From Secundilactobacillus hailunensis (GTDB taxonomy: Bacteria; Bacillota; Bacilli; Lactobacillales; Lactobacillaceae): 64,000 bases of DNA. The position numbers and the translations under genes are program-made. Under the pieces are notes generated by a model. The model was not told where the DNA came from and searched no databases. It saw only the letters and a program-made list of their open reading frames with translations. Shown here in pieces: positions 45,091 to 63,030 of the stretch. The DNA is taken from positions 1 to 64,000 of the forward strand of contig NZ_BJDO01000003.1 in NCBI RefSeq assembly GCF_005405185.1. Reading direction: 5' to 3'. Within the stretch, counting starts at the first letter, position 1. Each line of letters begins with the position of its first letter.

Positions 45091-45185
45091 GATCTTATCC
45101 CTCTTTCGATTAAATAAATCGCATTTCATATTAAAACCACAAAAACTACTTCGCTTGAAAAAGTTTAAATAGCTTTTGGTTCAGC

Positions 45186-46724: not shown

Positions 46725-46800
46725 TTTATTAACTTGATCTGTATTCGGAATAGGTTTTGCTGATAATAAACTGCTAACACTTGAAGACGAAGAACTACTT

Positions 46801-46920
46801 GATGATGACGATGAGAAAATACTCGATCATGAAGAGCTGCTCGACAATGCAGAACTATTTGATGATGAAGATGAGAAAATGCTCGATGATGAAGAGCTGC
46901 TCGACAATGCAGAACTACTT
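46801..46920 (-). repeat. Two tandem 60-bp repeats coding the Ser-rich stalk
   Basis: Copies at 46801-46860 and 46861-46920 differ at four positions, and a partial third copy begins at 46921. One difference (46828 C versus 46888 G) turns a Ser codon into TGA in the first copy. Because 60 is a multiple of three, loss of that copy would restore the frame. Confidence 0.92.
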
Positions 46921-47456
46921 GATGATGACGATGAACTGCCAGTGTTTGAAAATACAGAACTGCTTGATGATGAAGAACCATCTGTATTGGTAGTTGAAGA
47001 GCTCGAACTACCAGAACCCTTGACAGCCGTTACCTTTGACCAATCAAACTGTTCATATGCAGACTGATTCATATCCATGTGAAACAGCGCAACTACGATG
47101 TGGTAATCGACTAAGACTTTCGGAGTTTCATCAGGCATCGTAAACGTTAAATTAGACCCATCTAAAACAGAACTTTGACCAACAGAGGCACTCTTTAAAT
47201 CGGCTTGCCCAGCCGAAGTTATCGGCACTGATACCTTGTAGGTCCCATTATTTACAACAACGTTCGCTGTGTCCCCTAGAAAGGCCCCAGCTGCACTAGT
47301 GCCCCCCGTATCTTTATTAATCGCTTTCGCTGGTACGGTATACGACCCATCCGCCAGTGCGTCCGCTTTAACCTGACCTAGAGCGCTTACACTTACTAGT
47401 GCAAAAATGAGCAATAATGTGTATCTGAACATCTTTTTAACCCAATTTTTCTTCAT
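46827..47456 (-). CDS. N-terminal part of the multi-NEAT protein (signal peptide, NEAT-like, Ser-rich)
   Basis: 209 codons to the premature TGA. The signal peptide ends near VSALGQVKA. A NEAT-like domain follows (DGSYTVPAKAINKDTGG, NNGTYKVSVPI, VDYHIVVALFHMDMNQSAY), then a tail that is almost all serine. If the stop is real, this would be secreted as a free soluble NEAT protein rather than a wall-bound one. Confidence 0.75.
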   Translation of the reverse strand: MKKNWVKKMFRYTLLLIFALVSVSALGQVKADALADGSYTVPAKAINKDTGGTSAAGAFLGDTANVVVNNGTYKVSVPITSAGQADLKSASVGQSSVLDGSNLTFTMPDETPKVLVDYHIVVALFHMDMNQSAYEQFDWSKVTAVKGSGSSSSSTTNTDGSSSSSSSVFSNTGSSSSSSSSSALSSSSSSSSIFSSSSSNSSALSSSSS

Positions 47457-47459
47457 CAA

Positions 47460-47811
47460 TAATTCCTCCCACGCGAGAATAATCTATATTATGGCAAAAC
47501 CGTCTACTCACTTTAACCTTCAAAATCGAACTATAAAGTTCAACAGCTAAAAGCTACAATACTGTTCCACGTTGAAAAGTATAACTCAAAACCATTAAAA
47601 TATAAATTGAAATATTCCAAATAAGTATATTTATTTAAAACTATTAGTATCGTAAAATAATTATTGATTGCTCAATAGCTTTATAGTTATGAGTTTCACT
47701 TTAGCAACGCGGCATTGAATCCCCCCAGAAATTTACGAATTACACCTCCCTTAATGATCTCCAGCTTCAATCATTCAATTTCACACGCTAAAACAGCGCG
47801 TAAGAGTTACA
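47460..47811. other. AT-rich region upstream of the heme locus
   Basis: About 350 nt with no credible ORF. Near the NEAT gene is the imperfect palindrome ATAATCTATATTAT, and further out GAACT-ATAA-AGTTC. Either could be an iron- or heme-responsive operator, but neither matches the Fur consensus well. No clear -35/-10 pair stands out. Confidence 0.4.
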
Positions 47812-47836
47812 AAAAAAGCCCACCGAAGTGAACTTT
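47812..47836 (-). terminator. Terminator after the orphan gene
   Basis: GTTCAC-TTCG-GTGGGC, a UUCG-capped stem using G-U pairs, is followed by seven T on the minus strand. Confidence 0.8.
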
Positions 47837-47840
47837 AGAC

Positions 47841-48233
47841 CTAGCCTAATTTAAATGGTGTAGAAATTGACACATTAATCGCCTGATGGCCATTAGCCAC
47901 ACATGTTTGAGCAACGTGACTAAGCAAGTGATGCGATTGAATATAGGTTCTAAACTCTGACAATTTTGGCACTTGCAACTGCAGACGGTTAGCCGATTGA
48001 TCAACTTCAATTCGGTCAAGCTGGCAATCTTGATTGAGCCGTAGAATCACGGTTTCGACAATTCCTAACACAAACTGACTGTTCGTCAGGTAGTTAACGT
48101 TGGCAGTTTCAAGGTTGAATTTCATTGATCCCGTCGTTAAATCCTTCTGTTCATCATCCATCGTGGCACGATATGTAACCACAATATCGCGTGAAGTTAC
48201 TTTGTTGCGAATCTTCAACGTATAAGCAATCAA
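47841..48233 (-). CDS. Unrecognised 130-residue protein
   Basis: I do not recognise this family. The protein is soluble, with no signal peptide or TM helix and a mix of beta-like segments (YTLKIRNKVTSRDIVVTYRA; MKFNLETANVNYLT). The start is set by AGGAG followed 8 nt later by TTG at 48233. The longer frame begins at a GTG (48254) that lies before the SD. It has its own terminator and lies between the antiporter and the heme locus, on the same strand as both. Coding is supported by SD, terminator and ordinary composition. Confidence 0.65.
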   Translation of the reverse strand: MIAYTLKIRNKVTSRDIVVTYRATMDDEQKDLTTGSMKFNLETANVNYLTNSQFVLGIVETVILRLNQDCQLDRIEVDQSANRLQLQVPKLSEFRTYIQSHHLLSHVAQTCVANGHQAINVSISTPFKLG

Positions 48234-48369
48234 AAGATCATCTCCTGTCAACACTATCTGACGGACTAACCATTAATCGAACTATCGTTATTATACTAAC
48301 TACCTAATATTCCTACTATATCTTATAAACATAATGTTACTAATTTCACACAATAAATTCAACCTTTAT

Positions 48370-50358
48370 TTATCGATATGATTCGCTATTTTGAATATAC
48401 GTAATTTCGTCAAAGGAAATCCGCTGCTGCAATTTTTCTGCGAGATCCGCGGAAATATCGCCCTTAGCAATTGCTCGCTGAATCAGTTCGTATTCTGCAT
48501 GAAAGGCACGCATAAACAGCTGATAAACCATATTGGGGTCAACATCGCCGCCACGAATTCGACGGTGACGAGTTCGATAGAAGCGCCGGACAAGGTTTGT
48601 TTCAACCCCGTTTTCTCCACTATTACGTTTAAGATAGTCCATCACTGCTTCAAAGCCAGCTGCTTCGATTGGCAGAATATCTTCACCGTGTTTTTCAAAC
48701 GCCTCACGCCAATAAACTTCTTCCAACGCCACCGGTGCGGTCAAAAAGGCTTCCTGCGCGCGATGCAGATCCTTGTAGAGTGTCCCAATGTGAAGACTGA
48801 ACCGAATTCGCAACCAAACGTTTTTCCAGACTTTTTCATCAGCGGAAAAATGGTTTAACTCCAAGAATTTATTATAGTAGGTCATTTCATCTTCCGTGAT
48901 CCGACCGTTCTCATACATTTCCCGAATCTTTTGGCTTTCAACCTTGTGCGCTTGTTTCATAATCTGCCGTTCGATCCGTAAATTCGGTGTCGCATCCAAG
49001 ATCAAGGCCTGCTGCAATGAATCAATGACGATCTGAGCTTCAGCCGGATACTCCTTTTCCGCAACTAGATCACTGATACCGGCTTGAATCATCCGTCGAA
49101 CCCACTTATACCGTGGCTGCGTTGATTCCTGACTCGGCAGTAATAGCGGAACAAAAATGGTTGGTAGCAACAAACTGGTTAAGATCACGACTGCGGCCAG
49201 AAAAATCAACGGTCCTCGTAACAAAAACGCATGCCCATTGACCATCGTTGGAATTGAAAAGGCCAAGGACAACGTAATCGTCCCGTTAGCACCACTTAAC
49301 GCCATAACCAAACTATCACGCCAGATATGATCACTCTTTGTTCGGCGCTTGAGTAAAAACCGGGTCCATAACAGACGAATAATACCCTTTAACGCATACA
49401 AGAAAAGACCCAGTAATAATAATTTAGGAATCGTGATCTGCGTATTGGTATGCACGTCCAAAGCGCGAATAACGTCTGGCAGCGAAAGCCCTAAAAGCAC
49501 GAACACCGTTCCAGACAAGACGCCACTAACAATTTCCCAGACATTGCTGGTCACCAGCTGCATTCGCGATGACGTCAGCCGTAGCTTATCCCGTTCAGAA
49601 CCCTGTACCAGTCCAGCAGCCACAACTGCTAGAATACCAGACAAGGCCAGCTTTTCAGCTAATAAATACACCAAAAACGGCGTTAATAGTTGAATCAGCA
49701 CCATAATCAGTGGCGTGTCATCGTTGTGCCGAATGAGAAATAGTCGTGTGCTGACGACCATTACACCAATAAAGGCCCCAAATAGCAGCCCACCAAGGAA
49801 TTCCCAGACAAACATCCCCACGGCCGTGCTAATTGAAAACTTGCCTGACATATAAGCCGCTAAGGCCATATCGAAAATAACGATCCCAGCGGCATCATTA
49901 AACAGCGATTCATGCTGCAAAGTGGCCGCCTGTTCTTCCGCAATCGGGTTTGCCTCAAAAATCGAGTTCACCGCAGATGCATCGGTAGGCGCCACAATCG
50001 CAACTAACGCAAAACTTAAGCTCAATGGCAAAATTACATAAAGCGCATGAATGCTTATCCCGACAACGAGCACCGTGACCACTACCAGTCCAACAGCCAA
50101 CGATAAGATATTAGTAATCGAGCGTCCGATCCAAAACCGAGAACTGTTCTGCGCTTCATTGAATAGCATTGGTGCAATAATCGCAAACGCAAACGTTGAT
50201 GGGTCTAGATGAAATCCCCTATAGGCTGGCAGTAATGCCAGCAGTAGCCCTAATATAATCAGAAAAAATGGCAACGGAATGGCTGTCAGGTGCCGCGATA
50301 AAATATTAGCGAGCACCACCACAGCTAGAATAATAATGAGTAAAAGTACTTGATCCAT
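48370..50358 (-). CDS. CPA1-family Na+(K+)/H+ antiporter
   Basis: A 662-residue NhaP/CPA1 antiporter. About 12 helices span residues 1-410, with the APTDASAV and ESLFNDAAGIVIFD ion-binding motifs of CPA1 proteins. A cytoplasmic helical tail of about 240 residues is likely regulatory. It helps control internal pH and sodium in acid-producing bacteria. It follows map with a 77-nt gap. Confidence 0.93.
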   Translation of the reverse strand: MDQVLLLIIILAVVVLANILSRHLTAIPLPFFLIILGLLLALLPAYRGFHLDPSTFAFAIIAPMLFNEAQNSSRFWIGRSITNILSLAVGLVVVTVLVVGISIHALYVILPLSLSFALVAIVAPTDASAVNSIFEANPIAEEQAATLQHESLFNDAAGIVIFDMALAAYMSGKFSISTAVGMFVWEFLGGLLFGAFIGVMVVSTRLFLIRHNDDTPLIMVLIQLLTPFLVYLLAEKLALSGILAVVAAGLVQGSERDKLRLTSSRMQLVTSNVWEIVSGVLSGTVFVLLGLSLPDVIRALDVHTNTQITIPKLLLLGLFLYALKGIIRLLWTRFLLKRRTKSDHIWRDSLVMALSGANGTITLSLAFSIPTMVNGHAFLLRGPLIFLAAVVILTSLLLPTIFVPLLLPSQESTQPRYKWVRRMIQAGISDLVAEKEYPAEAQIVIDSLQQALILDATPNLRIERQIMKQAHKVESQKIREMYENGRITEDEMTYYNKFLELNHFSADEKVWKNVWLRIRFSLHIGTLYKDLHRAQEAFLTAPVALEEVYWREAFEKHGEDILPIEAAGFEAVMDYLKRNSGENGVETNLVRRFYRTRHRRIRGGDVDPNMVYQLFMRAFHAEYELIQRAIAKGDISADLAEKLQQRISFDEITYIQNSESYR

Positions 50359-50435
50359 AATTACCCCTCACCCCCACTTATGAAACCAGTATAACGGTGT
50401 TAAGGGCATTTGCCACAGATTTTGTTTGGCTTTAT

Positions 50436-51227
50436 CTATAAGTATTTAGCATCTCTAATTGGATCTTGAGAAGTTAAGATCTTGGGGCCATCTTTAGTAA
50501 TGACCAAAGTGTGCTCAAACTGCGCCGATGGTTTCCCGTCGGCTGTCACGTAGTACTCCCATGAATGATCAGCCGTTTCCATTGAGCGAATCTCACGGGT
50601 CCCCAAATTGACCATGGGCTCAATGGTAATAGTCATGCCTTCACGCAGGCGCAAGCCCTTTCCAGCCGTTCCGTATGCTGGCACGTCCGGCTGCTCATGC
50701 ATCGTCGGCTGGATACCATGGCCGATCAGTTCGCGGACATCGCCCATTTTATTTTCAGTCTCTACATATTGCTGAATGGCCGCACCAACATCACCTAACC
50801 GGTTACCGATCACAGCCTGATCAATACCGCGATATAGCCCCTCTCTGGTAACATCAAGTAAACGTTGGCTTTCTACTGAGATGTCACCAACCGCATAGCT
50901 GCGGCAGGCATCGCTTAAGAATCCGTTCAAATTCACAACGAGGTCCACTGCCACGACGTCACCGGACTTTAAGATCAGCGCCTTTCTAGGCGTGGCATGG
51001 GCCACCTCATCGTTGACGTTCACACAGGTAGCGTACTTATAACCTTCAAATCCCTTTTCTTCAGCGGTCGCACCATGTTCTTCAATGTAGGTATTGGCAA
51101 ATTTCTCGATCTCCCAAGTTGAGATGCCCGGCTTAATGACTGTCTTGAGACCGTTTAATACCCCTGCTAATACCGCACCGGAGGCACGCATCTGTGAAAT
51201 TTCACGGGTTGATTTTAACGTAATCAT
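50436..51227 (-). CDS. map: Type I methionine aminopeptidase
   Basis: MetAP (263 aa) removes the initiator Met. Metal ligands are visible as the Asp pair (VAVDLVVNLNGFLSDACRSY), His in GHGIQPTMHE, Glu in ITIEPMV and Glu in AQFEHTLVIT. It is a Bacilli type I form without an N-terminal extension. It is not beside rpsM/infA, so this may be a second, non-ribosomal-cluster copy. Confidence 0.94.
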   Translation of the reverse strand: MITLKSTREISQMRASGAVLAGVLNGLKTVIKPGISTWEIEKFANTYIEEHGATAEEKGFEGYKYATCVNVNDEVAHATPRKALILKSGDVVAVDLVVNLNGFLSDACRSYAVGDISVESQRLLDVTREGLYRGIDQAVIGNRLGDVGAAIQQYVETENKMGDVRELIGHGIQPTMHEQPDVPAYGTAGKGLRLREGMTITIEPMVNLGTREIRSMETADHSWEYYVTADGKPSAQFEHTLVITKDGPKILTSQDPIRDAKYL

Positions 51228-51257
51228 GGATAATTCTCCCTTATTAATTAATTTAAT

Positions 51258-51806
51258 TCATTTAAAGAAATCTTTGATTCGGGTTAGTCCTTCAGCGATT
51301 TCTTCATCCGTCGGCAAACTATTATACTCCAACAGATAGTTAAAAACGCTATTAACAACGCCACTCACCACGGCCAGTTCAAACGGCGACGCTGACTCAC
51401 CCAGCATCTGACTCGTTGCCTTCTTAACCTGATCGGTAATTTGCTGGGTCAAATCAAAATCATTGAGGTGAATGGTCCGTAAAGCTAAAATTGGTCGCCG
51501 ATAGTTTTTAATTAAAGCCGTCAACCCAGGTCTTAAACGGTCAACGATCTGAATAACCGTCAGCTCCTGCTGAATTAGTTGAATGCGAAGCTGCGCAATG
51601 TCACCAAACCCTGCCACGACTTTTTGACTCAGCTTTTCTGCCAGATCGTACTTATCTAAATAGTGAGTATAAAAAGTTTGCCGGTTGATCATCGCACGTC
51701 GAGCTAGCCCGCTCACCGTGACCCTTTCGAACCCTTCAGTCAGGACTAGATCCACAAAAGCATCTTGAATAGCACGCTTAGTTTTCAATACTCTTAAGTC
51801 TGTCAT
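51258..51806 (-). CDS. TetR/AcrR-family regulator
   Basis: A 182-residue regulator with an N-terminal helix-turn-helix (FERVTVSGLARRAMINRQTFYTHYLDKYDL) and an all-helical ligand-binding part of the TetR_C type. GGAGG lies 6 nt upstream. It is divergent from the acyltransferase/GT8 operon across a 190-nt region rich in inverted repeats, so it probably controls that operon and itself. Confidence 0.9.
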   Translation of the reverse strand: MTDLRVLKTKRAIQDAFVDLVLTEGFERVTVSGLARRAMINRQTFYTHYLDKYDLAEKLSQKVVAGFGDIAQLRIQLIQQELTVIQIVDRLRPGLTALIKNYRRPILALRTIHLNDFDLTQQITDQVKKATSQMLGESASPFELAVVSGVVNSVFNYLLEYNSLPTDEEIAEGLTRIKDFFK

Positions 51807-51830
51807 GATATTCCTCCACTTCTAATTTAT

Positions 51831-51964
51831 CATCATTTCCCTTTAATGTGTATAGTTAAACGACAAATCAGTTATAGAATGTAACATAAACCACAGGTCG
51901 TCACAAATTGACAATTGTATGGTACAAAGCCGTTATCTATACTCGATGTAAGGGAAAAATGATG
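51831..51964. repeat. Long imperfect inverted repeat between the TetR gene and the acyltransferase operon
   Basis: The minus strand of 51831-51855 and the plus strand of 51937-51964 both read CTATAC, then AAGGGAAA, then TGATG with small gaps. Each copy contains the likely -10 of its own gene, giving two mirror-image promoter/leader regions around about 80 nt. Confidence 0.65.
51915..51943 (+). promoter_or_regulatory. Promoter of the acyltransferase/GT8 operon with an operator-like palindrome
   Basis: TTGTAT (51915-51920) and TATACT (51938-51943) are 17 nt apart. The -35 lies in the perfect palindrome TTGTA-TGG-TACAA (51915-51927), a plausible TetR-family binding site. Confidence 0.7.
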
Positions 51965-51996
51965 TGAGCACTCACTTTTGAAAGGAGATGATCAAA

Positions 51997-52764
51997 GTGC
52001 ATTTCAAAATGGGACAAACCATCTACTACACTAATACTACGGAAGATATTGTCGCAACTCGACAGCAAGATTTTCAATTATCAGCGGATTATCACTGGCA
52101 AACATCGCCAGTCGCCACGAAAATGCGGTATTTTTTCCAATTTATTATTCAATTATTCGCCCGTGTTTACTGCCGCTGGGCGCTGCATATTCGCTACGTC
52201 AATCGTCAACTGCTGAGAGATAACCCTAACGGCTGCTATTTATATGCTAATCATACCCAACAAACGGGCGACGCTTTCAGTCCATTTTGCGTCACCGCCC
52301 ATCCTGCTATTATTATTTCACCTTCAAATTTAGGGATTCCCATTGTTGGTCGCCTGCTTTCAGCCGCTGGCGGTTTGCCGATTCCATCCACGCCACGTTG
52401 CTTGAAGCCATTTTTACAAGCAGTTTATCACCGGCTTGACGCCGGCGAAACCGTTGTAATCTATCCGGAATCCCACCTGTGGCCCTATGCCACTCAGATT
52501 CGACCATTAGCACCAGCTAGTTTTCACTATCCGGCTAGCCACCCTGCCCCAGTCTACACTATGACAACAACGTATCAGCACTCTAGGTGGCACCGCCGTC
52601 CCAAAATTACGGTTTATCTCGACGGCCCCTTTCAACCGGATACTTCGCTGTCCCTGAAAGACCGTCAAAAAAGACTCCAGCAGCAGGTCAGTTCTCAGCT
52701 GCACAAGCGTAGCCAGAACAGCACTTACCAATATGTTACCTACCAGAGGAGGTCACAACCTTGA
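51997..52764 (+). CDS. Divergent PlsC-like acyltransferase (first gene of glycolipid-type operon)
   Basis: A 255-residue protein resembling lysophospholipid/1-acylglycerol-3-phosphate acyltransferases. Motif I is YANHTQQTGD, with five rather than four residues between His and Asp. Motif III is IYPESHLWPY, and an RPLAPASFHYP segment follows that is shared with the fourth gene of the operon. One weak hydrophobic stretch lies near residue 40. The start is GTG at 51997, 9 nt after AGGAG. The ATG at 51988 touches the SD. It overlaps the next gene by 4 nt (TTGA). Confidence 0.85.
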   Translation: MHFKMGQTIYYTNTTEDIVATRQQDFQLSADYHWQTSPVATKMRYFFQFIIQLFARVYCRWALHIRYVNRQLLRDNPNGCYLYANHTQQTGDAFSPFCVTAHPAIIISPSNLGIPIVGRLLSAAGGLPIPSTPRCLKPFLQAVYHRLDAGETVVIYPESHLWPYATQIRPLAPASFHYPASHPAPVYTMTTTYQHSRWHRRPKITVYLDGPFQPDTSLSLKDRQKRLQQQVSSQLHKRSQNSTYQYVTYQRRSQP

Positions 52765-53582
52765 ATGTCTTATACTGTGGGGACCAGCAAATGGAAGATG
52801 GCGTATTGATATCAACGCTTTCCTTGCTTGATAACATTTCTGAACCGTTACACATCTACCTGTTAACTGCAACCATTAAGACGCCAAAACGAGATTATGA
52901 ACCATTTACAATCAAAAAGACGCGGTCACTGAACGCATTAGTCCAATCCTATGATCAGCGAAACAGCGTCACTAGGATCGATATTACTGACCAATTTGCT
53001 CAGCAGCCGCCGCTTGCAAATATGAATACTTTATTCACCCCTAATTGTATGCTGCGCTTATACGCCGATGATATCGCAGCCTTACCCGACCGCATTCTTT
53101 ACCTTGATGCAGATGTGGTCTGTCGCCGCGACTGTTCAGCCTTTTATCATCAGCCAATTAAGAACATCGAATTAGTTGGGGTTTTAGATCACTACGGCAA
53201 ATGGTTCTTCCGTCAGCCACTGAAAAAATTTAGTTACTTGAATTCTGGGGTCTTACTGTTGAACTTAAAGGTCATTCGCAATAACGGGCTGTTTGCTGAT
53301 GCCCGCAGGCTCTGCCAGGTTCACCGCATGTTTATGCCCGATCAAACCGCGATTAATAAACTGGCGGCTGAAAAGCAAATTGCCCCCACCCGTTTTAACG
53401 AACAGAAAAAGTTAAAATCCAATACCGTTTTTCAGCATTTTACGACCAGCTTTCGTTTTTTCCCCTGGGTCCATACCCAGACGGTCAAGCCTTGGCAGAT
53501 CGACCGGATGCACACCGTTTTAAAATTACACGCATATGATGATCTGCTGAAACAATACCAGCAGGTTAAGAAAACACTTTAG
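52761..53582 (+). CDS. GT8-family glycosyltransferase, first copy
   Basis: A 273-residue GT-A fold enzyme of family 8 (retaining; galactosyl or glucosyl transferases). The DxD motif is LYLDADVVCRRD near 113, with LNSGVLLLNL and MPDQTAINKLA as further GT8 marks. The start is TTG at 52761, 8 nt after GAGGAGG and overlapping the previous stop. It has no TM helix. It probably glycosylates a lipid or teichoic-type acceptor made with the neighbouring acyltransferases. Confidence 0.9.
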   Translation: MNVLYCGDQQMEDGVLISTLSLLDNISEPLHIYLLTATIKTPKRDYEPFTIKKTRSLNALVQSYDQRNSVTRIDITDQFAQQPPLANMNTLFTPNCMLRLYADDIAALPDRILYLDADVVCRRDCSAFYHQPIKNIELVGVLDHYGKWFFRQPLKKFSYLNSGVLLLNLKVIRNNGLFADARRLCQVHRMFMPDQTAINKLAAEKQIAPTRFNEQKKLKSNTVFQHFTTSFRFFPWVHTQTVKPWQIDRMHTVLKLHAYDDLLKQYQQVKKTL

Positions 53583-53593
53583 GAGAGATACTC

Positions 53594-54538
53594 ATGAAAA
53601 TTCCAATTTTTTACGCCATTAATGACCAATACGCATCACTATTAAGTGTCAGTCTGCAGTCTTTAGCTGACCATGCCAGTCCCAAGAACCAGTACCAGAT
53701 CACCGTTTTGTACCAAACGCTTTCTGCTGAGAATCAGCAAAAACTATCATCCGTTGCTACTGACAACGTTCACATTCACTTTTCAGCCCTTGACGATCAA
53801 TTTTCAAAATTATTTGAAAAAGACCATAACCTGTTACTGGCAGATATCCGAACGTTAACCATTTATTACCGATTATTCATTGCGGCTATGTTTCCCAACT
53901 ATCAAAAAGCCATCTATCTCGATGCCGACACACTGGTCATGCAAGATATTGCCGGGCTGTATCAGATTGATTTAGGCCAGCACGCGATTGGTGCTGTCAC
54001 TGATCAATTACTCGCCATTGACCCCGATTTATCCGCTTATCCCGCACAAGTTGTCGGCGTGAATGCCGCAAACTATGTTAATTCCGGCGTACTTTTGTTA
54101 GATCTAGCCAAACTGCGCCAACAAAAATTCTCGCAACGTTTCTTAGCACTGCTGCAGCAATATCACTTTAAACTGATCGCTGCTGATCAAGATTACCTGA
54201 ATGCCATGGCTAAGGATAAGATCACTTTCTTACCGGTAAAATGGAACGATCAGACAACGGTACCCTTTGATGAAAATGGGGATGTTGGTTTAGTCCATTA
54301 CAATCTCTTCCGCAAGCCGTGGCACTATCTGGATGTTCCCTGCCATCAGACCTTCTGGAAAACGGCGGACCGCACCCCCTATGCTCAAGATCTGCACGAC
54401 ACACTGGCACAATATGATGACAAGGATACCTCGGCGGATGATGTGAAACACCAAAGCCTTGTAAATACTGCCAACCAGTTGTTTAAAGAAAAGGTGACGT
54501 TGAAAACGGTTCTTAGTCAGGGGGCGGCTTCATTGTGA
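53594..54538 (+). CDS. GT8-family glycosyltransferase, second copy
   Basis: A 314-residue GT8 enzyme. Marks are the N-terminal PIFYAINDQYASLLSVSLQSL, DxD in IYLDADTLVMQD near 116, VNSGVLLLDL, AADQDYLNAM and the C-terminal HYNLFRKPWH. It is similar in layout to the preceding GT8 but clearly divergent, so the two probably add different sugars or linkages. The stop overlaps the next gene's GTG (GTGA). Confidence 0.91.
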   Translation: MKIPIFYAINDQYASLLSVSLQSLADHASPKNQYQITVLYQTLSAENQQKLSSVATDNVHIHFSALDDQFSKLFEKDHNLLLADIRTLTIYYRLFIAAMFPNYQKAIYLDADTLVMQDIAGLYQIDLGQHAIGAVTDQLLAIDPDLSAYPAQVVGVNAANYVNSGVLLLDLAKLRQQKFSQRFLALLQQYHFKLIAADQDYLNAMAKDKITFLPVKWNDQTTVPFDENGDVGLVHYNLFRKPWHYLDVPCHQTFWKTADRTPYAQDLHDTLAQYDDKDTSADDVKHQSLVNTANQLFKEKVTLKTVLSQGAASL

Positions 54539-55413
54539 GCAATGACGAACAGGTAGTGGTTAATAATATCATTCAAGCTGTTAACGACGGCGCCTTTCAC
54601 CGTAAAGTTGAGGTCTCTGACCCAACACTGTCACCGACAGACGCTCAGGCAGTTCTCACGCAATATTTAAACCGGCGTCACTCACCCTCATTTGCGGTTA
54701 AATCATGGCTGGCTGGGCAAATTATACTCGCAGCGGTGCATCATGTGAACCGTAAAACGACCGTCTCCGGACTGGAAAAGATTAATCAGATTAAGACTGG
54801 CGCCATTGTCACCAGTAACCATTTCCACCCAATGGAAAACACGGCTATTCGATATGCTCTGCGCCAAGCGGGATTCAAGAAAATGGCCATTGTCAGTCAA
54901 GTCACTAACTTTCAAATGACCGGGTTCCTCGGTTTTATGATGAACTATGCCAATACGTTGCCTATCAGCACCAATCTGCATTATTTAGGTCAAGAATTTC
55001 CCCAGCTGATTCAAGAAAAATTGGCTGCTGGCGTACCCATTTTAATCTATCCCGAACAGGAAATGTGGTGGCGCTACCGTAAACCCAGACCGTTCATGTC
55101 AGGCACTTATCACTACGCTGCCAAATTCAACGTACCGGTGATCTCTTGTTTTACCGAAATGCAGTTAACTGATCAGCCAGCCGTCAACGGTGTGACCCCC
55201 GTCACCTATCACGTGCATGTGCTTGACCCGATTTACCCAGATACGACGCTCAATGAACACGCCAGCTGTGAACAGATGCGCCAGCAAGATCAGCGACAAA
55301 AAAAGGCCGCCTACGAGGCAGCCTATCATGAACCATTAACCTATCAATTTGAACGTGACGATATCGTGGGCTGGGACTATGGTAATACCACCTTGGCCAC
55401 CGACTTGCCCTGA
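54535..55413 (+). CDS. Divergent PlsC-like acyltransferase, last gene of the operon
   Basis: A 292-residue acyltransferase. Motif I is SNHFHPMEN, with Glu in the place of the catalytic-dyad Asp. Motif III is IYPEQEMWWRYRKPRP, followed by SGTYHYAAKFNVPVI. It shares the YPE-x-x-W and RP...HY pattern with the first gene, so the two look paralogous. The start is GTG with AGGGGG upstream. Its last 37 nt overlap the 3' end of sbcC on the other strand. Confidence 0.87.
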   Translation: MSNDEQVVVNNIIQAVNDGAFHRKVEVSDPTLSPTDAQAVLTQYLNRRHSPSFAVKSWLAGQIILAAVHHVNRKTTVSGLEKINQIKTGAIVTSNHFHPMENTAIRYALRQAGFKKMAIVSQVTNFQMTGFLGFMMNYANTLPISTNLHYLGQEFPQLIQEKLAAGVPILIYPEQEMWWRYRKPRPFMSGTYHYAAKFNVPVISCFTEMQLTDQPAVNGVTPVTYHVHVLDPIYPDTTLNEHASCEQMRQQDQRQKKAAYEAAYHEPLTYQFERDDIVGWDYGNTTLATDLP

Positions 55414-58400
55414 CCCATTGGCTGAACTTGAATCTGATACGAAATCGTTTCTTGCAGTAAGGTCACATGACTGATAATACCAATCATCCGATTACTGGAT
55501 TCGACGTTTTCCAACGCCTTCATCGCCGTTGATAGCGATTCTTGATCCAGTGATCCAAAACCTTCATCAATAAATAGCGCATCGATACTAATGCCACCGG
55601 ATTCATTTTGAATGGATTCGCCAAGTGCCAGTGCCAAACTTAAAGCAGCGATGAAGCTTTCACCGCCAGACAGCGTGTGCACACTGCGAACTTGCCCGAC
55701 ATTATCATCGTAAACATCGATTTCAAGTCCGGTATTTTTTTGATAAGCACCCGCTTCTAGATGAAGCTGCATTGAATAACGTCCAGAACTCAGCTGGTTT
55801 AAATGCTGGTTGGCAATCGTCAGGATTTCAGCCAGTTGAGCTCTTAATACATACCGTTCCAAGCCGAGTTTATTATCACCGCCACCTGCAACGGTCTCGA
55901 CTAAGAGCTGAAGCTCATTCAGTTCATCCAATTGGGCTGCAACTTGCTGAGTTGCAGCCTTTAATTGTGCCAAAATATCACCGTTTACGGTAACTTGCTT
56001 TTGACTTTCATCAGCTTGTTTTTGAGCCGTTTGCAGCTGCTCATTACAGTCAGCTAACTTCTGTCGGTTCTCGGTTACATCAACCAGCTGCTTATCACCA
56101 ACTAACTGCTGATATGCTGCCACATCCGCTTTGGCAGTCGTTAGCGCTTGCTGATGATCCTGAATGGCCTTCTTAAGGATGGGTATCTGATCCAGTTGGC
56201 CGATCAATTCAACAAACTGAGCCATTTTATTCGAACCTAAATGCACTTTAACTGTCTTTTCTAAAGCATTGGTAACCTGAGTTAACTTCTCTTCAGTTTT
56301 CTTTAACGTTGCTTCTGTGTTCTGTAAATTAGCTTGCGTCGTCGCCACTTGTTCCTTACTGTGTTGCAAAGCCTGATCATTCTGCTGTACTTGTTGCTGG
56401 TGCTTGGTCACTTGCTGCTGTTGCTGCGTCATATAATTATCAAGAGCGGTCAAATCGGCAAATTCAGCTGGCAGCTGTTTTTGAGCTGTTTCCAGTTTAG
56501 TCTGGGTGGTTTGCAGGGCTAATTTAGCCGATTGAACCCTTCCCTTTAGCGTTTGAATCGTCTGTTGCTGGTCTTCGATTGCTGCGGTCTGCATTTGTCG
56601 TTCAGCAATTGCCTGATCAACTTTAGCCAACTGCTGGGTGACATCGCTCAGCTGCTGTTCAGTTTCAGTTGCCTGTTGCGTAATCTTTGAAAGCATGACT
56701 GCCACCGTCAGACTAGCCTCAACTTTAAGCTCATCTCGGAGCTGCTGTTCTTGTTGGTTAACGGCTTGTCGCAGCGTCTCTAGTGCTTGCTGTTGATTGG
56801 TTAAGTCAGCAGTGGCTTTTGTACGTTGATCTTTTAACTGCTGCAGGGCCTGTTCAGCCACTTTGATCGTTTCATTGTCAACTGGTTTCGTTGCGGTCAC
56901 CGCGTGAGGTGCCGGATGAGAGACACTGCCACAAACTGGGCATGGTGTTCCCGGTTTCAACTGACTGGCCAACACAGCAATTTGTCCCGCCAGCCACTGA
57001 TTTCTTAACATCTCATATTCAGTATTGGCAGTGGCCGTCTTTTGATTTAGGTCAGTGACTGTTGACTGGAGAGCTGCAACTGTTTTTTCCTGCTTAGTTA
57101 ATTGGGCTTGCTGGTCAAACAAATCACTGACCCGTTTCTTCGTGCTTGCCTGATCAACTTTTAGCGCCGTTAGCCGAGCACTGGTTTTCAGCAGATCCGC
57201 TTGCTGTCCAATTTGGTCGTTCAACTGTTTGAGTTCAGCTTGCTGAGTAACTTCAGTCGCCTGAGTTTTTGACAGCTCAGCAGCCAGCTTCAAATGATTG
57301 CGATCATCTTGATCCAGCTGCTGATTCAACTGGCGTACTTGTTCATAGAGTGGCCGTTGCTTTGAAAGAACCGCAATTTCAGACTGAATTTTAGTCATTT
57401 TCTGAGTGATTTTTGTTAATTGCCCCCGTTGTGCTTCAAACTGTTGAGAGGTTGTCGTTTGGGTTTTTAAGTCATTAGTTAAAGTAACTTTTTGCCGTTT
57501 CAATTGTTGTTGCTGTGTGGCTAACTCCTGTTGCTGTCCATAATCATGCTGCTGTTCGTTCACCCAATTCAGCGTATCTAGTTGCTGCTGTTGCTGGTCA
57601 ATTTGTGGCTGATCCGCTTGCAGTCTTTTTTCTTCTTGGTGTTTAACGTTTAATTTCTCAATGTTTTGGTTCATTTTTTGATCAGTCTCAATTTGATTAT
57701 TCAGCTGATTAACTTTTTTTTGCGTGGCCGTTAATGCTTGCTTAGTAGCCGTTAAATTCGTCTGATCCTGCTGATACTGACCTTCAAGCTGTTCGAGACC
57801 ATGTTCGCCATCAGTAGTCGTCCAGCGTACCCGTTTCAGCCCGCTATCAATCACCGACCGCGCTGATTTGATCTGCTCTCGCTGGGTATTCAGCTGCTGT
57901 TTTAAGACCGTTGCCCAGCGCTGAAACAGCTGGGTCCCAAATACTTTTCTGAGGATGGCTTCTTTGGCACTGGAATCCGATACCAAAAAACGTCTAAATT
58001 CACCCTGTGGGAGTAAGACAATTTGCACAAACTGCTTGCGGCTGATCTGCAAAATATCGGTCAGTTTAAGATTGATTTCCTGCATCCGGGTAATTTCATC
58101 GGTTTTCACACCCGCTTTAAAAATCATCAGTTTACCGCTGCTGGGATATTCACGAGTACCCGTCCCACGCTTTTTAGCTAAAGTTTGTTTGGACTGACGT
58201 GTAACCTCGTACTCTAGCCCTTTATGTTCAAACCTCAACGTCACCGTAGTGGGCTCATCGGTTTCCGCAAAATCCGAGCGTAACGCTGAAGGATCACGGT
58301 CATCACTGGCACTTTCACCGTATAACGCAAAGGTCATCGCATCAAAGAGCGTGGTTTTACCACTGCCCGTGGGTCCAGCAATCAAAAAGATTGAAGCATC

Positions 58401-58475
58401 GTCCAATTGAGTAAAATCAATGGTTTGCTTAGCGTACGGTCCAAAATTAGTCATTTTCAGTTGCAATGGTTTCAT
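55377..58475 (-). CDS. sbcC: Exonuclease subunit SbcC
   Basis: A 1032-residue Rad50-like SMC protein with Walker A GPTGSGKTTLFDA near 35, long coiled coils rich in Gln/Leu, the zinc hook CPVC (GTPCPVCGSVSHPAPHA near 515), signature LSGGESFIAALSLALALGE and Walker B ALFIDEGFGSLD. It acts with SbcD on hairpins and protein-blocked DNA ends. It overlaps sbcD by 4 nt. Confidence 0.96.
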   Translation of the reverse strand: MKPLQLKMTNFGPYAKQTIDFTQLDDASIFLIAGPTGSGKTTLFDAMTFALYGESASDDRDPSALRSDFAETDEPTTVTLRFEHKGLEYEVTRQSKQTLAKKRGTGTREYPSSGKLMIFKAGVKTDEITRMQEINLKLTDILQISRKQFVQIVLLPQGEFRRFLVSDSSAKEAILRKVFGTQLFQRWATVLKQQLNTQREQIKSARSVIDSGLKRVRWTTTDGEHGLEQLEGQYQQDQTNLTATKQALTATQKKVNQLNNQIETDQKMNQNIEKLNVKHQEEKRLQADQPQIDQQQQQLDTLNWVNEQQHDYGQQQELATQQQQLKRQKVTLTNDLKTQTTTSQQFEAQRGQLTKITQKMTKIQSEIAVLSKQRPLYEQVRQLNQQLDQDDRNHLKLAAELSKTQATEVTQQAELKQLNDQIGQQADLLKTSARLTALKVDQASTKKRVSDLFDQQAQLTKQEKTVAALQSTVTDLNQKTATANTEYEMLRNQWLAGQIAVLASQLKPGTPCPVCGSVSHPAPHAVTATKPVDNETIKVAEQALQQLKDQRTKATADLTNQQQALETLRQAVNQQEQQLRDELKVEASLTVAVMLSKITQQATETEQQLSDVTQQLAKVDQAIAERQMQTAAIEDQQQTIQTLKGRVQSAKLALQTTQTKLETAQKQLPAEFADLTALDNYMTQQQQQVTKHQQQVQQNDQALQHSKEQVATTQANLQNTEATLKKTEEKLTQVTNALEKTVKVHLGSNKMAQFVELIGQLDQIPILKKAIQDHQQALTTAKADVAAYQQLVGDKQLVDVTENRQKLADCNEQLQTAQKQADESQKQVTVNGDILAQLKAATQQVAAQLDELNELQLLVETVAGGGDNKLGLERYVLRAQLAEILTIANQHLNQLSSGRYSMQLHLEAGAYQKNTGLEIDVYDDNVGQVRSVHTLSGGESFIAALSLALALGESIQNESGGISIDALFIDEGFGSLDQESLSTAMKALENVESSNRMIGIISHVTLLQETISYQIQVQPMGQGKSVAKVVLP

Positions 58476-59614
58476 GCTTGCTCCCCACTTTCATTTGCCC
58501 GTTTGAGTGCTGCCTTCGCCCATTTTTCCTGTTGCGGGGTCAGACGCTCTTTTGCCACCTGCTCGTAAAAATCCCCTAATAGGTCCATTGGCGATTTTTG
58601 TCGAATCTGCTGACTAGTTTCACCATGGTAGCGAACTTGCGGGTCAAACCCATCTGCCCGCCCTAAAGTAACGATTCGTGGAAAGATTTCCCGTAAGCGT
58701 GCCATGACGTTGGGAATCGGCTGCTTATCGGTCAGCGTGATGCCAACGTAATCTTCGTGATTGACGGTAATATCATCAGCCGTAGCCATTAGCTCTTCAA
58801 AACTACTGGTGATCTGTCGCACGTCATGAATCGGCGTAATCGATTTGAACGTGACCTTGACGGGTGTCTGGTCGGTATCCACGATCCAAACGCCCTTTTT
58901 CTGGCTGGCTTCTGATAAGGAAAACTTAACTGGCGAGCCACTGTAACGGGCATTGGGCAGCTGCAACGCATCTTTTCCGTGTAAATGTCCTAAAGCAACG
59001 TAGTCAAAATCCGCTAATAGATCCGTTGGCACCGCGGCCAAACCTCCAACGGTTAAATTGGTTTCCGAGTCAGTAGTTGAACTGCCGGCTACAAAGAAAT
59101 GTGCTACTAATAGGTGCTTCTTAGAAGAATCAAAGTGGGTTTCCATTTCCGTAACAACTCGTTCAAACGCTTGATCCAAATGCTGAATAGTATCATCGTT
59201 AAAGTATTGCTGAGCCGCAAAGGGTTCAAAATAGGGACAGAGGAAAAGTTGCGTATCAGGTAATTCAATCGGGGTAAACGCTTGGCTAAGATCAGTATGC
59301 AGGTATAGATTAGTCGCCTTAAACCACGGCGTACCCGTTGCCAACCGTGTCGCACTATCATGATTACCAGAAATGGCGTAGATGGGTAAGTGGTCCGTCA
59401 GGTTCAGTTGCTGCAACATCTGATTGACCATTGCCACTGATGCTTCGCGGGGTAATCGTCGGTCGTAGACATCGCCCGCAATAATCAGGCCATCAACTTG
59501 TTCTTGTTTAGCGATCTGTTCGATCTGGTCAAAGGCGTTTTGCTGCTCATCGGTCAGATCAAAACCATGAAGCCGGCGACCAATGTGCCAATCCGCTGTA
59601 TGTAGCAATTTCAC
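58472..59614 (-). CDS. sbcD: Exonuclease subunit SbcD
   Basis: A 380-residue Mre11-type nuclease with LHTADWHIGRRL, IAGDVYDRRLP, ISGNHDS, LVAHFFV and LGHLHGKD metal motifs and a C-terminal capping domain. The start is GTG with GGAG upstream. It forms a second Mre11/Rad50-like pair in this window beside YhaO/YhaN. Confidence 0.96.
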   Translation of the reverse strand: MKLLHTADWHIGRRLHGFDLTDEQQNAFDQIEQIAKQEQVDGLIIAGDVYDRRLPREASVAMVNQMLQQLNLTDHLPIYAISGNHDSATRLATGTPWFKATNLYLHTDLSQAFTPIELPDTQLFLCPYFEPFAAQQYFNDDTIQHLDQAFERVVTEMETHFDSSKKHLLVAHFFVAGSSTTDSETNLTVGGLAAVPTDLLADFDYVALGHLHGKDALQLPNARYSGSPVKFSLSEASQKKGVWIVDTDQTPVKVTFKSITPIHDVRQITSSFEELMATADDITVNHEDYVGITLTDKQPIPNVMARLREIFPRIVTLGRADGFDPQVRYHGETSQQIRQKSPMDLLGDFYEQVAKERLTPQQEKWAKAALKRANESGEQA

Positions 59615-59772
59615 TCTTATCGCTCTCCGTTCGTATTCGATACCTTTTATTTTAGCAAATTAACAGTCGCTGGAAAAGCTAATACGCGAACATATTTTCG
59701 ATTTATTTGTCCCACTTGCCAAACTCACCAAAATAGCCTAATCTGCAGGTAACTTATAAAGGAGCTGATGAT

Positions 59773-60267
59773 ATGCTGCAGACAACTTACGCGTCACCGT
59801 TAGGCCAATTGATCCTGTTGGCGGATACTTCGCACTTATTGGGTGTCTGGTATTCTGACCAGGCTCATTTAGGCGCTCATTACCCACTTGCATCGATCAA
59901 ACATGGCAGTTCAACTGTGCTGAAACAAACTGCCCAGTGGTTAACCGCTTATTTTAATGGTCAAAAGCCATCCATTAAGCAACTCCCATTAGCACCAGAG
60001 GCCACACCCTTCCGCCAGCAGGTCTATCGTGTTTTGACAACGATTCCCTATGGCCAAACCATGACTTATCAGCAAATTGTTGAGCGACTGTCTGAATTAA
60101 ACGGTCAGCCAACTGGATCAGCTCGGGCAGTTGGTGGCGCCGTGGGCCACAATCCAATTTCAATTATTATCCCCTGTCACCGGGTTATCGGTACCAACGG
60201 CAACTTAACTGGTTATGCTGGGGGCCTAGCACGTAAAAAAGCGCTGTTAGCGCTGGAGCAGGCCTAA
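59773..60267 (+). CDS. ogt: Methylated-DNA--protein-cysteine methyltransferase
   Basis: A 164-residue suicide repair enzyme that removes O6-alkyl groups from guanine. The active-site motif IIPCHRVIG is intact, as are the helix-turn-helix region TPFRQQVYRVLTTIPYGQTMTYQQI and the YAGGLARKKALL end. AAGGAG precedes the ATG by 7 nt. Confidence 0.96.
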   Translation: MLQTTYASPLGQLILLADTSHLLGVWYSDQAHLGAHYPLASIKHGSSTVLKQTAQWLTAYFNGQKPSIKQLPLAPEATPFRQQVYRVLTTIPYGQTMTYQQIVERLSELNGQPTGSARAVGGAVGHNPISIIIPCHRVIGTNGNLTGYAGGLARKKALLALEQA

Positions 60268-60335
60268 ATCGGGTTAATTGTAATACCCAATTTTACCTGC
60301 AAAATGCTTGATAGCAACTTTTAGGAGGAATCTGA

Positions 60336-60911
60336 ATGATCCAAAAAATTGCGGTTTACTGTGGTGCATCCGCAGGAAATCTACCGGTCTACCAGCAAAC
60401 GGCTGCTGAACTTGGCCGTTACCTGGCTAAGCATCAGCTGGAATTAGTCTATGGTGGTGGCAGTGTCGGCTTAATGGGCGTACTGGCAACTGCCGTGATT
60501 GATGCCGGCGGTAAAGTACACGGCGTCATGCCGCAAAACCTCGTTGACCGTGGTGCTGCAGCTCACAATCTCACCGATCTGACGGTGGTTGACAATATGG
60601 CGCTGCGTAAACAGCGAATGTTAGCCATGGCCGATGGCTGTATTGCCCTGCCCGGTGGTCCAGGAACGTTAGAGGAAATCGTTGAAGCCTATTCTTGGGC
60701 GCGAATCGGCGATAACCCTAACCCCTGTGTTTTTTATAACGTCAATCACTATTACGATCCGTTAAAGACCTTTTTTGATCAAATGGTTCAGCAAGGCTTT
60801 CTCACTGCTGAACATCGCAGTAAGGTGTTGTTCGTCGATCGGCTCACTGAGATTTTTAACTTCATGGCCCATTACACCCCCCCAACCGTTAGAACCAACT
60901 ATCATCACTAA
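60336..60911 (+). CDS. LOG-family (TIGR00730) nucleotide phosphoribohydrolase
   Basis: A 191-residue Rossmann-fold protein of the lysine-decarboxylase-like LOG family. It has the diagnostic PGGPGTLEE (PGGxGTxxE) motif near 107, YGGGSVGLMG, and MALRKQRML. Relatives hydrolyse nucleoside 5'-monophosphates, including cytokinin ribotides. The bacterial role is probably purine nucleotide salvage. AGGAGG lies 7-8 nt upstream. Confidence 0.93.
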   Translation: MIQKIAVYCGASAGNLPVYQQTAAELGRYLAKHQLELVYGGGSVGLMGVLATAVIDAGGKVHGVMPQNLVDRGAAAHNLTDLTVVDNMALRKQRMLAMADGCIALPGGPGTLEEIVEAYSWARIGDNPNPCVFYNVNHYYDPLKTFFDQMVQQGFLTAEHRSKVLFVDRLTEIFNFMAHYTPPTVRTNYHH

Positions 60912-60916
60912 AAAAC

Positions 60917-60951
60917 AAAGCCCTGCCATATCTGTTGGCAGGACTTTTTAG
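60917..60951 (+). terminator. Terminator after the LOG-family gene
   Basis: AAGTCCTGCCA-type stem (CCTGCCA / TGGCAGG) followed by ACTTTTT on the plus strand. Confidence 0.82.
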
Positions 60952-61020
60952 TGTTCAATTAACTGGATTCTAGTTATAATCATACTCAAAAAGTAATCAT
61001 TAAGAAGGGAGCTGTCTATC

Positions 61021-61509
61021 ATGCTTGCTGATGTGCACTACTCCACGCAAGTACATACGGACGTTTTTCAGGGACTCATTGTATTGGATAAGCAGGCGCA
61101 GCGCCATTTTTGGGCAACCTGCTCACAGTTGGTTTGTCTAGTCATTTTATTAGCGTCAACAATTGGCATGATGAGTATACCGCCACTTTCATCAATGAAC
61201 TATACGACGGTTAGTCTACAAGCAATTTGGGCTTCGCCAGTTGAGCGCTTATTTATATTCTTAATTATAGGGTCATTTGGCATCTCCTGGATCTTTTGGC
61301 TTCGCGACCTTAAATATCAAACCCTAGCTTCAAAATACGATCAGCTATATCGGGAACACTTAGCCATGATCAAAGCTTCAGCACCCCTAACGGAACTGAA
61401 TGCCCATTACCGCTATCTGATGTCGCTGGCAAGCCACTTTACACTGACCAGTAATGTGATTTTACTGGCATACGCGGCAGCCATTATTATTTATCATCTA
61501 CAACCCTGA
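61021..61509 (+). CDS. Small integral membrane protein, function unknown
   Basis: A 162-residue protein with three hydrophobic segments (about 38-60, 80-96 and 140-160) and a charged loop between the second and third. I do not recognise a family. AAGGGAG lies upstream of the ATG, and a TATAAT sits about 40 nt before it, so it probably has its own promoter. Confidence 0.7.
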   Translation: MLADVHYSTQVHTDVFQGLIVLDKQAQRHFWATCSQLVCLVILLASTIGMMSIPPLSSMNYTTVSLQAIWASPVERLFIFLIIGSFGISWIFWLRDLKYQTLASKYDQLYREHLAMIKASAPLTELNAHYRYLMSLASHFTLTSNVILLAYAAAIIIYHLQP

Positions 61510-61618
61510 ACCACACTGCTTTTTAGAATTCAAAAATGGGATAGCCAAACCAAATACTTGACCTTGTCTCATTTTTTTGGCATACTCACCGTGAATTTAA
61601 TCTTTGGAGGTGGGTAAG

Positions 61619-62419: not shown

Positions 62420-62432
62420 ATATAGTTCAGAG

Positions 62433-62477
62433 AAAAGTAGCGTTGGTAACTTGAATGAGTTTACCAACGCTACTTTT
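62433..62477. terminator. Bidirectional terminator between the esterase and glutathione peroxidase genes
   Basis: AAAAGTAGCGTTGGTAAC / GTTTACCAACGCTACTTTT, a long stem with A and T flanks that serves both converging genes. Confidence 0.92.
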
Positions 62478-62479
62478 AT

Positions 62480-62950: not shown

Positions 62951-63030
62951 ACTTCTTCCTCCTCTTAAAAGCATTGTGCACAATCAATATAACGCTTTTA
63001 AGCGACACTAACAAGCTATTGCAACGATTA

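What the first reader, a model, noticed from the sequence alone, without database searches (positions are those of the whole stretch)
51997..55413. Uncharacterised four-gene operon: acyltransferase, GT8, GT8, acyltransferase
All four genes overlap or nearly touch and share one promoter beside a divergent TetR regulator. Two paralogous acyltransferases bracketing two GT8 sugar transferases suggest sequential acylation and glycosylation of one product, for example an acylated glycolipid, lipoteichoic anchor variant or glycosylated polyol lipid. I know of no described pathway with exactly this set. It is my best candidate for a new system in this window.
Basis: inference. Interest (0 to 1): 0.65.

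Follow-up and report, generated by a model that had tools for sequence, protein, structure and literature searches.

The report
Likely four-gene glycolipid operon
Four neighbouring bacterial genes, two that look able to attach fatty acids and two that look able to attach sugars, were found together or not at all in the sampled lactobacilli and recur in gut bacteria, and most likely build an extra sugar-bearing membrane lipid that has not been identified.

Summary
The operon is real: TetR (51258-51806, -), then P1 (acyltransferase fold, 51997-52764), Ga and Gb (GT8, 52761-53582, 53594-54538) and P2 (acyltransferase, 54535-55413). Among 151 genomes of the family each of the four genes was found in 41, the same 41, even where one gene lies elsewhere. 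Of 80 loci fetched by P1, 59 hold all four in seven arrangements, 10 are cut by contig ends, 11 lack one or more nearby. In 11 of 12 loci of one arrangement ACP and phosphopantetheinyl-transferase genes lie beside the set; in the twelfth they are under 2 kb away. Orthologues of the four surround horA on beer-spoilage plasmids, where print reports high transcription of such genes in beer (PMC3765258). Best reading: one four-enzyme pathway for an accessory acylated glycolipid, made at the inner membrane face from acyl-ACP and UDP-sugars. The lipid itself is unknown; decoration of the lipoteichoic acid anchor is the main rival. Two relatives without the operon keep a TetR remnant at the site, which suggests loss.

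The parts
51258..51806 (-). TetR-family regulator, divergent from the operon
   Evidence: TetR_N 27.9 bits, cut-off 24; nearest NCBIfam DhaS 46.7 bits, far below its cut-off of 129; orthologue 55% identical at the same place in Secundilactobacillus folii
51855..51866 (+). GTTAAACGACAA, possible half-site; in S. folii the same letters begin a perfect 15-bp inverted repeat
   Evidence: one exact match in the window; with one mismatch allowed 2 matches, 0.49 expected, so weak on its own
51964..51975 (.). palindrome GTGAG-CA-CTCAC just before the ribosome-binding site, candidate TetR operator
   Evidence: once in the window, 0.04 expected; among 138 loci only in copies of this locus and of the S. 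folii locus, there with centre TG
51983..51987 (+). AGGAG ribosome-binding site for P1
   Evidence: sequence
51997..52764 (+). P1, acyltransferase-fold protein with invariant NHTxxxxD (HX5D) and YPE-x-H motifs
   Evidence: 82 of 82 sequences; PlsC 5kym_A Z 17.1, rmsd 3.7, 190 aligned
52761..53582 (+). Ga, GT8 glycosyltransferase, DXD motif intact
   Evidence: 71 of 71 sequences; LgtC 1g9r E 2.6e-7
53594..54538 (+). Gb, GT8 glycosyltransferase, DXD motif intact
   Evidence: 65 of 65 sequences; WbbM 6u4b E 5.4e-29, LgtC E 2.8e-25
54535..55413 (+). P2, acyltransferase (PF01553) with HX4[D/E] and YPE motifs; its 3' end overlaps the end of the opposing gene (55377-58475) by 37 bp
   Evidence: 70 sequences; PlsC 5kym_A Z 15.6, rmsd 4.2, 195 aligned

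Best explanation
The operon encodes one four-enzyme pathway for an accessory acylated glycolipid. Ga and Gb each transfer a hexose, with retention (alpha linkage), from UDP-Gal or UDP-Glc at the inner face of the cytoplasmic membrane. P1 and P2, two LPLAT-fold enzymes, each place a fatty acyl chain from acyl-ACP on a hydroxyl of the same molecule. TetR represses the operon through the GTGAG-NN-CTCAC palindrome and releases it under membrane stress. Shown here: gene anatomy, conserved catalytic motifs, GT8 membership, acyltransferase folds, co-occurrence of all four genes in one family, acyl-ACP genes beside the set in one group of loci. Inferred: donor sugars, order of steps, acceptor, that the product is a glycolipid, and the regulation.
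For: Each of P1, P2, Ga, Gb is in 41 of 151 family genomes and the four sets of handles are identical (equality scripted). In G042 both Ga copies lie over 400 kb from P1 and in G116 Gb is on another contig, so the tie is not only linkage. 59 of 80 P1 loci hold all four in seven arrangements. P1: N88 H89 T90 D95 Y159 P160 E161 H163 invariant in 82 of 82; P2: H and D/E in 70 of 70; DXD in 71 of 71 Ga and 65 of 65 Gb. Folds: PlsC first, then glycerol-3-phosphate acyltransferases, PatA and LpxM. In the 12 loci of the convergent arrangement ACP and phosphopantetheinyl-transferase matches lie beside the set in 11 and 1.6-1.9 kb away in L011, and 11 have an acyl ligase match (one representative of each was family-scanned). 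In 8 loci a gene like L060's 1470-aa protein (two BcrAD_BadFG stretches and DUF2229, the make-up of plasmalogen synthase) follows P2 (PMC12838417, passages). The genome has another PF01553 protein of 78.5 bits elsewhere. No 19-residue stretch over hydropathy 1.35 in the four window proteins. Print: four of five genes around horA, called phospholipid or cell-wall genes, each have over 3-fold higher transcription in beer than horA (PMC3765258, passages); that these are our four is my inference from the plasmid's gene table.
Against: No product, substrate or activity has been measured. P1 fails the Pfam cut-off and has HX5D in place of HX4D. PF01553 and GT8 include enzymes with other acceptors. 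No flippase belongs to the conserved set. 11 of 80 loci lack one or more of the genes nearby, and only one of those genomes (L062 = G116) was searched for the rest. Co-occurrence was counted in one family only and without correction for kinship. The major L. johnsonii glycolipids of PMC5328823 carry no acyl group on a sugar, so the product may be minor or induced. TetR operator and ligand are untested.
Confidence: 0.65

Rival explanations
1. The enzymes do not build a lipid from the start but decorate the ready diacylglycerol glycolipid or lipoteichoic acid anchor: the GT8s add alpha-galactose, the acyltransferases add fatty acid to a sugar hydroxyl, as PatA does on phosphatidylinositol mannosides (PatA function recalled).
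For: PMC5328823 (passages) cites Gal-alpha1-6-Gal-alpha1-6-Gal-alpha1-2-Glc-diglyceride in L. johnsonii and L. intestinalis, and a form with fatty acid on glucose O-6 in L. casei and L. plantarum. L. johnsonii ATCC 33200 carries two tandem Gb genes (L075). Gb resembles the alpha-galactosyltransferase LgtC. PatA and LpxM are among the matching folds. P1 is in 47 of 61 genomes of the genus of L. johnsonii (genus named through).
Against: The acceptor would have to exist in Lachnospiraceae, Ruminococcus and uncultured Bacilli too. The anchor enzymes presumed for L. gasseri are GT4 (PMC8401598, passages). The L. johnsonii strains of PMC5328823 lacked the tetraglycosyl form. All four genes go together in 41 of 41 genomes, more than decoration would need.
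Confidence: 0.25
2. Two separate jobs in one stress operon: the acyltransferases remodel phospholipids, the GT8s glycosylate a wall polymer.
For: Print on horA plasmids describes the neighbouring genes as phospholipid or cell-wall genes (PMC3765258, passages). Each family alone is common.
Against: Same 41 of 151 genomes for all four, also when one gene is unlinked.
Confidence: 0.07
3. A glycan or secondary metabolite that is not a lipid, with short acyl groups.
For: ACP and phosphopantetheinyl transferase near the set in 12 of 12 loci of one arrangement, ligase in 11, would also suit an unusual acyl group.
Against: The matching folds are enzymes of long-chain lipid making; a plasmalogen-synthase-like gene follows in 8 loci.
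Confidence: 0.03

Closest known systems
horA region of beer-spoilage plasmids (Pediococcus claussenii pPECL-8, Secundilactobacillus paracollinoides pL11994-7)
   Same: orthologues of all four genes, 41-50% identical to the window's
   Different: there Ga is separated from P1-Gb-P2 by the HorA exporter on the other strand and no TetR is annotated beside them; in the window the four are one operon with TetR, and no HorA match was found among chosen ORFs between 45000 and 63000 (the rest of the genome was not searched for HorA)
Roseburia sp. 831b plasmid operon
   Same: same four genes, same order, 42-53% identical
   Different: other flanking genes, no TetR annotated in the stretch shown
Lipoteichoic acid anchor pathway of lactobacilli
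   Same: glycolipid with alpha-hexoses (print)
   Different: anchor enzymes presumed in L. gasseri are GT4 (PMC8401598, passages); here both are GT8
PatA and LpxM
   Same: related fold; they acylate a sugar of a glycolipid (recalled)
   Different: 6-13% identity over the aligned part
Rouxiella glucoselipid operon glcABC
   Same: uses a PlsC/LPLAT-family acyltransferase to make an acylated sugar lipid (PMC12299268, passages)
   Different: no GT8; GNAT and HAD-phosphatase partners

Membership tests
LPLAT/PlsC family PF01553 (P2) | score over Pfam cut-off of 23 bits | tested here: met
   36.4 bits
LPLAT/PlsC family PF01553 (P2) | HX4D/E motif (motif recalled) | tested here: met
   70 of 70; D in 50, E in 20 including the window
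LPLAT/PlsC family PF01553 (P1) | score over Pfam cut-off of 23 bits | tested here: not met
   18.3 bits, 19.9 in the genome search
LPLAT/PlsC family PF01553 (P1) | HX4D motif (motif recalled) | tested here: not met
   HX5D in 82 of 82
LPLAT fold (P1) | PlsC-like structure | tested here: met
   AF2 mean pLDDT 92.5; 5kym_A Z 17.1, rmsd 3.7, 190 aligned
Housekeeping PlsC, TIGR00530 | score over 102.95 bits | tested here: not met
   P2 22.9 bits; P1 no match listed at E 0.1
GT8 (PF01501) | score over 24.3 bits | tested here: met
   Ga 51.7, Gb 140.8
GT8 (PF01501) | DXD metal motif (recalled) | tested here: met
   D116/D118 in 71 of 71 Ga; D110/D112 in 65 of 65 Gb
LgtC-type alpha-galactosyltransferase | UDP-Gal as donor, alpha linkage | not testable with these tools
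   sequence similarity only
horA region | HorA gene beside the lipid genes | tested here: not met
   no HorA match among chosen window ORFs 45000-63000
Lipoteichoic acid anchor pathway | GT4 glycosyltransferases | tested here: not met
   both transferases match GT8; no GT4 family listed

The most novel reading that the evidence does not exclude
The module makes a membrane lipid class not yet described: a diglycosyl lipid assembled sugar first and then acylated twice from acyl-ACP, independent of diacylglycerol glycolipids. On beer-spoilage plasmids HorA is its flippase, so the horA region protects cells partly by remodelling the membrane with this lipid rather than only by pumping out hop acids.
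Probability: 0.15. Interest if true: 0.85.

Novelty: new variant of a known kind. Interest (0 to 1): 0.62.

Why it matters
A four-gene set found whole or not at all in 151 sampled genomes of one family (17 of 40 genera have it), in 47 of 61 sampled genomes of Lactobacillus in the strict sense by its P1 gene, and in gut Clostridia points to a widespread but unassigned membrane lipid in host-associated and food bacteria. It gives a direct genetic handle on bacterial glycolipids, and a testable reason why the horA plasmids carry lipid genes.

Tried and rejected
Gb as an optional step: five loci hold P1-Ga-P2 without Gb nearby (L023, L031, L062, L073, L082), which first suggested so; but L062 (Ligilactobacillus araffinosus, identical to L094 from G116) has Gb on another contig, so this was dropped. 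The genomes of the other ten partial loci were not searched for the missing genes.

Recent foreign gain as the reason for the patchy presence: operon GC 46.0% against 45.3% for the window, the same site in S. folii and remnants of the TetR end in L110 and L111 speak for older presence and loss. The remnants show TetR, not the whole operon; how many losses there were was not tested with a tree. A remnant of the P2 end in L108 is only three residues beyond the overlap with the opposing gene and is weak; the other four of seven junctions show no clear remnant.

Homologues of P1 and P2 in the PDB by sequence: none with E below 0.09; the fold search found them. No paper on the function of this set was seen in the listings of searches, of which I opened passages of eight papers; subscription papers, among them the original horA-region papers and Iwamori 2011, were not read.

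Distribution: the scan of 398 genomes of the phylum found only the window's genome, that of 198 genomes of the order found 13, all in the family; frequencies in Clostridia were not obtained.

The plasmalogen-synthase reading of the neighbour rests on domain make-up and length of one representative; no comparison with a proven sequence was made.
Full report
Where it is. The window lies in a genome of 2.7 Mb (G000). A genome of the same genus, G152, is identical in the fetched stretches to Secundilactobacillus folii (L112 and L119 against L005, 100%), so the window is Secundilactobacillus. The operon lies between a M24 peptidase gene and a large gene that I name sbcC from its sequence (no call).

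Anatomy. TetR 51258-51806 (-); P1 51997-52764; Ga 52761-53582; Gb 53594-54538; P2 54535-55413. Overlaps of 4 bp, a gap of 11 bp and an overlap of 4 bp suggest translational coupling. In the 33 loci with the same order the median distances between longest ORFs are -4, 5 and 3 bp. No window protein has a likely transmembrane span (best 19-residue hydropathy 1.34; the usual threshold near 1.6 is recalled), so they should work at the inner membrane face.

What the enzymes are. Both GT8s pass the Pfam cut-off and keep the DXD motif in 71 of 71 Ga and 65 of 65 Gb. Gb is similar to LgtC and to the GT8 part of WbbM (E 2.8e-25 and 5.4e-29), Ga more weakly to LgtC (E 2.6e-7). That GT8 enzymes retain the sugar's configuration and that LgtC uses UDP-Gal is recalled. 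P2 passes PF01553 and has HX4D/E in 70 of 70. P1 does not pass (18.3 against 23 bits) and has the histidine and the aspartate five residues apart, invariant in 82 of 82. AlphaFold2 models of both have mean pLDDT 92.5. Their best solved match is PlsC of Thermotoga maritima (P1 Z 17.1, rmsd 3.7, 190 aligned; P2 Z 15.6, rmsd 4.2, 195 aligned), followed by glycerol-3-phosphate acyltransferases, a complex I assembly entry (7zkq), PatA and LpxM. P1 is therefore an LPLAT-fold protein with a variant motif, not a filed member of PF01553. The genome has another PF01553 protein of 78.5 bits elsewhere, so phospholipid synthesis need not depend on P1 or P2.

Co-occurrence. Four searches over 151 genomes of the family found P1, P2, Ga and Gb each in 41, with identical sets of handles, in 17 of 40 genera; the other 110 had none of the four at the thresholds used (with 1e-20, 1e-40, 1e-50, 1e-50; equality scripted). 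Without allowing for kinship, chance identity of two such sets is about 6e-38; kinship makes this too strong. In G042 both Ga copies are more than 400 kb from P1 (P1 at C1:492831, Ga at C1:53972 and C1:1239453), in G116 Gb is on another contig, and in G013 and G080 Ga is on the other strand nearby. Over the loci, orthologues stand apart from other matches in score (lowest own against highest other: P1 253.5 and 78.5 bits, Ga 267.6 and 59.6, Gb 164.6 and 55.5, P2 102.5 and 84.5, the last close).

Range and arrangements. Of these 80, 59 hold all four genes, 10 are cut by a contig end, and 11 lack one or more nearby: five without Gb, one without Ga, one without P2, three with P1 and one GT8 only, and L058 with divergent matches. 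The 59 show P1-Ga-Gb-P2 (33), P1 facing P2-Gb-Ga (12), Ga-Gb-P2-P1 (9), two with doubled Gb, and three single cases. Kept content in changed order is what selection for a joint function gives. The titles name Lactobacillaceae, Lachnospiraceae, Oscillospiraceae, Ruminococcus, other Clostridia, uncultured Bacilli and, once each, Bacillales and Saccharibacteria. P1 is in 13 of 198 genomes of the order, all in the family, in 1 of 398 of the phylum, the window's own, and in 47 of 61 genomes (41 of 49 good ones) of the genus that holds L. johnsonii ATCC 33200 (the locus from G741 is 100% identical to L075).

Neighbours. In the 12 loci of the convergent arrangement tblastn finds an acyl carrier protein and a 4'-phosphopantetheinyl transferase: in 11 within about 460 bp of Ga, in L011 1.6-1.9 kb away on the other strand with a short transferase match. 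11 of the 12 have an AMP-binding ligase match; L043, without one, is a contig of 5.9 kb. One representative of each was identified by family search. This points to acyl-ACP as donor. In 8 loci, seven labelled as clostridial groups and one Bacillota, a gene 59-73% identical to L060's, or L060's own, follows P2 by 9-136 bp; the L060 protein (1470 aa) has two BcrAD_BadFG stretches and DUF2229. PMC12838417 (passages) describes single-gene plasmalogen synthases of 4.2-4.9 kb with two activation and two reduction domains. The likeness suggests that the operon's product, or the membrane it joins, is a glycerolipid. In 5 loci a gene like the PAQR/haemolysin-III gene of L050 lies just before Ga.

Regulation. 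Full-length TetR of the window's type is about 200 bp from the set in the window, S. folii (55% identical) and Secundilactobacillus malefermentans (L051, 37%); a partial match lies at a like distance in L032, and other matches are weak or further off. Another TetR group precedes P1 within 31 bp on the same strand in five loci and is found as a weaker match on the far side of the set in four. The palindrome GTGAG-NN-CTCAC occurs once in the window (0.04 expected), just before the ribosome-binding site, and at the same place in S. folii with another centre; among 138 loci it is found only in copies of these two sites. It was not seen in the aligned stretch of L051. In S. folii a perfect 15-bp inverted repeat begins with GTTAAACGACAA, which the window has once exactly, between the two genes.

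History. 5 of 15 genomes of the genus have Gb. In G152 the set is at the same site; in G156, G157, G159, G139, G155, G115 and G153 M24 and sbcC are neighbours without it. Two of the seven junctions read keep the end of TetR: LTRIKAFIK-stop (L110) and LLRVKEFIK-stop (L111) against LTRIKDFFK-stop in the window. This suggests that the locus was there before and was lost at least once. The beer-plasmid form is 99.7-99.9% identical in DNA to L002 in three genomes given three genus codes (G083, G103, G154), a sign of recent spread; G154 is only 91% complete with 8% contamination.

Link to hop resistance. On pPECL-8 (33,246 bp, as in the paper) and pL11994-7 orthologues of the four genes surround HorA: Ga, HorA on the other strand, P1, Gb, P2. 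PMC3765258 (passages) states that five genes keep the same order around horA, that four of them are phospholipid or cell-wall genes, and that each has more than 3-fold higher transcription in beer than horA; it does not name them in those passages, and I equate them by position. PMC6533708 (passages) lists two glycosyltransferases and two acyltransferases among plasmid genes of beer spoilers. PMC4814128 (passages) reports that horA itself did not track spoilage ability significantly in 20 P. damnosus strains, a point against a large role of this region there. The present finding adds that the four are a unit with a chromosomal form far beyond breweries.

Product. Known lactobacillus glycolipids (PMC5328823, passages) are Gal-alpha1-2-Glc-alpha-diglyceride and longer forms, in L. 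johnsonii and L. intestinalis with extra alpha1-6 galactoses, in L. casei and L. plantarum with a fatty acid on glucose. L. johnsonii ATCC 33200 has two Gb genes. This fits decoration by GT8s, but the link rests on one species, and the strains of that paper lacked the longest form. I hold assembly of an accessory acylated glycolipid as most likely and decoration of the anchor as the main rival.

Verdict. New variant of a known kind: known enzyme families in a combination that goes together as a unit.

Noticed in passing
L002 3424-5175, L004 8866-10617; L028 1-795: HorA lies within the plasmid form of the gene set; Loigolactobacillus iwatensis has a 74% identical HorA piece (238 residues) at the edge of the locus, about 7 kb before P1.
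   Followed up: partly
L032, L033, L034, L042, L054, L056, L060, L079: A plasmalogen-synthase-like gene follows P2; the window's genome has a DUF2229 gene on contig C37.
   Followed up: partly
L021, L048, L050, L065, L076: PAQR/haemolysin-III-like gene just before Ga.
   Followed up: no
L010: A contig labelled Saccharibacteria carries the convergent set with ACP, transferase and ligase; misbinning is possible.
   Followed up: no
window 50436-51227: All 15 genus genomes searched hold two matches to this M24 peptidase gene.
   Followed up: no
window 51831-51843 and 51950-51964: Inverted copies of CATCATTT and TTTCCCTT flank the TetR/P1 intergenic region.
   Followed up: no
G037 C1:31855-32712 and G070 C38:20029-20883: Second P2 copies away from the operon in two genomes of the L. 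johnsonii genus.
   Followed up: no
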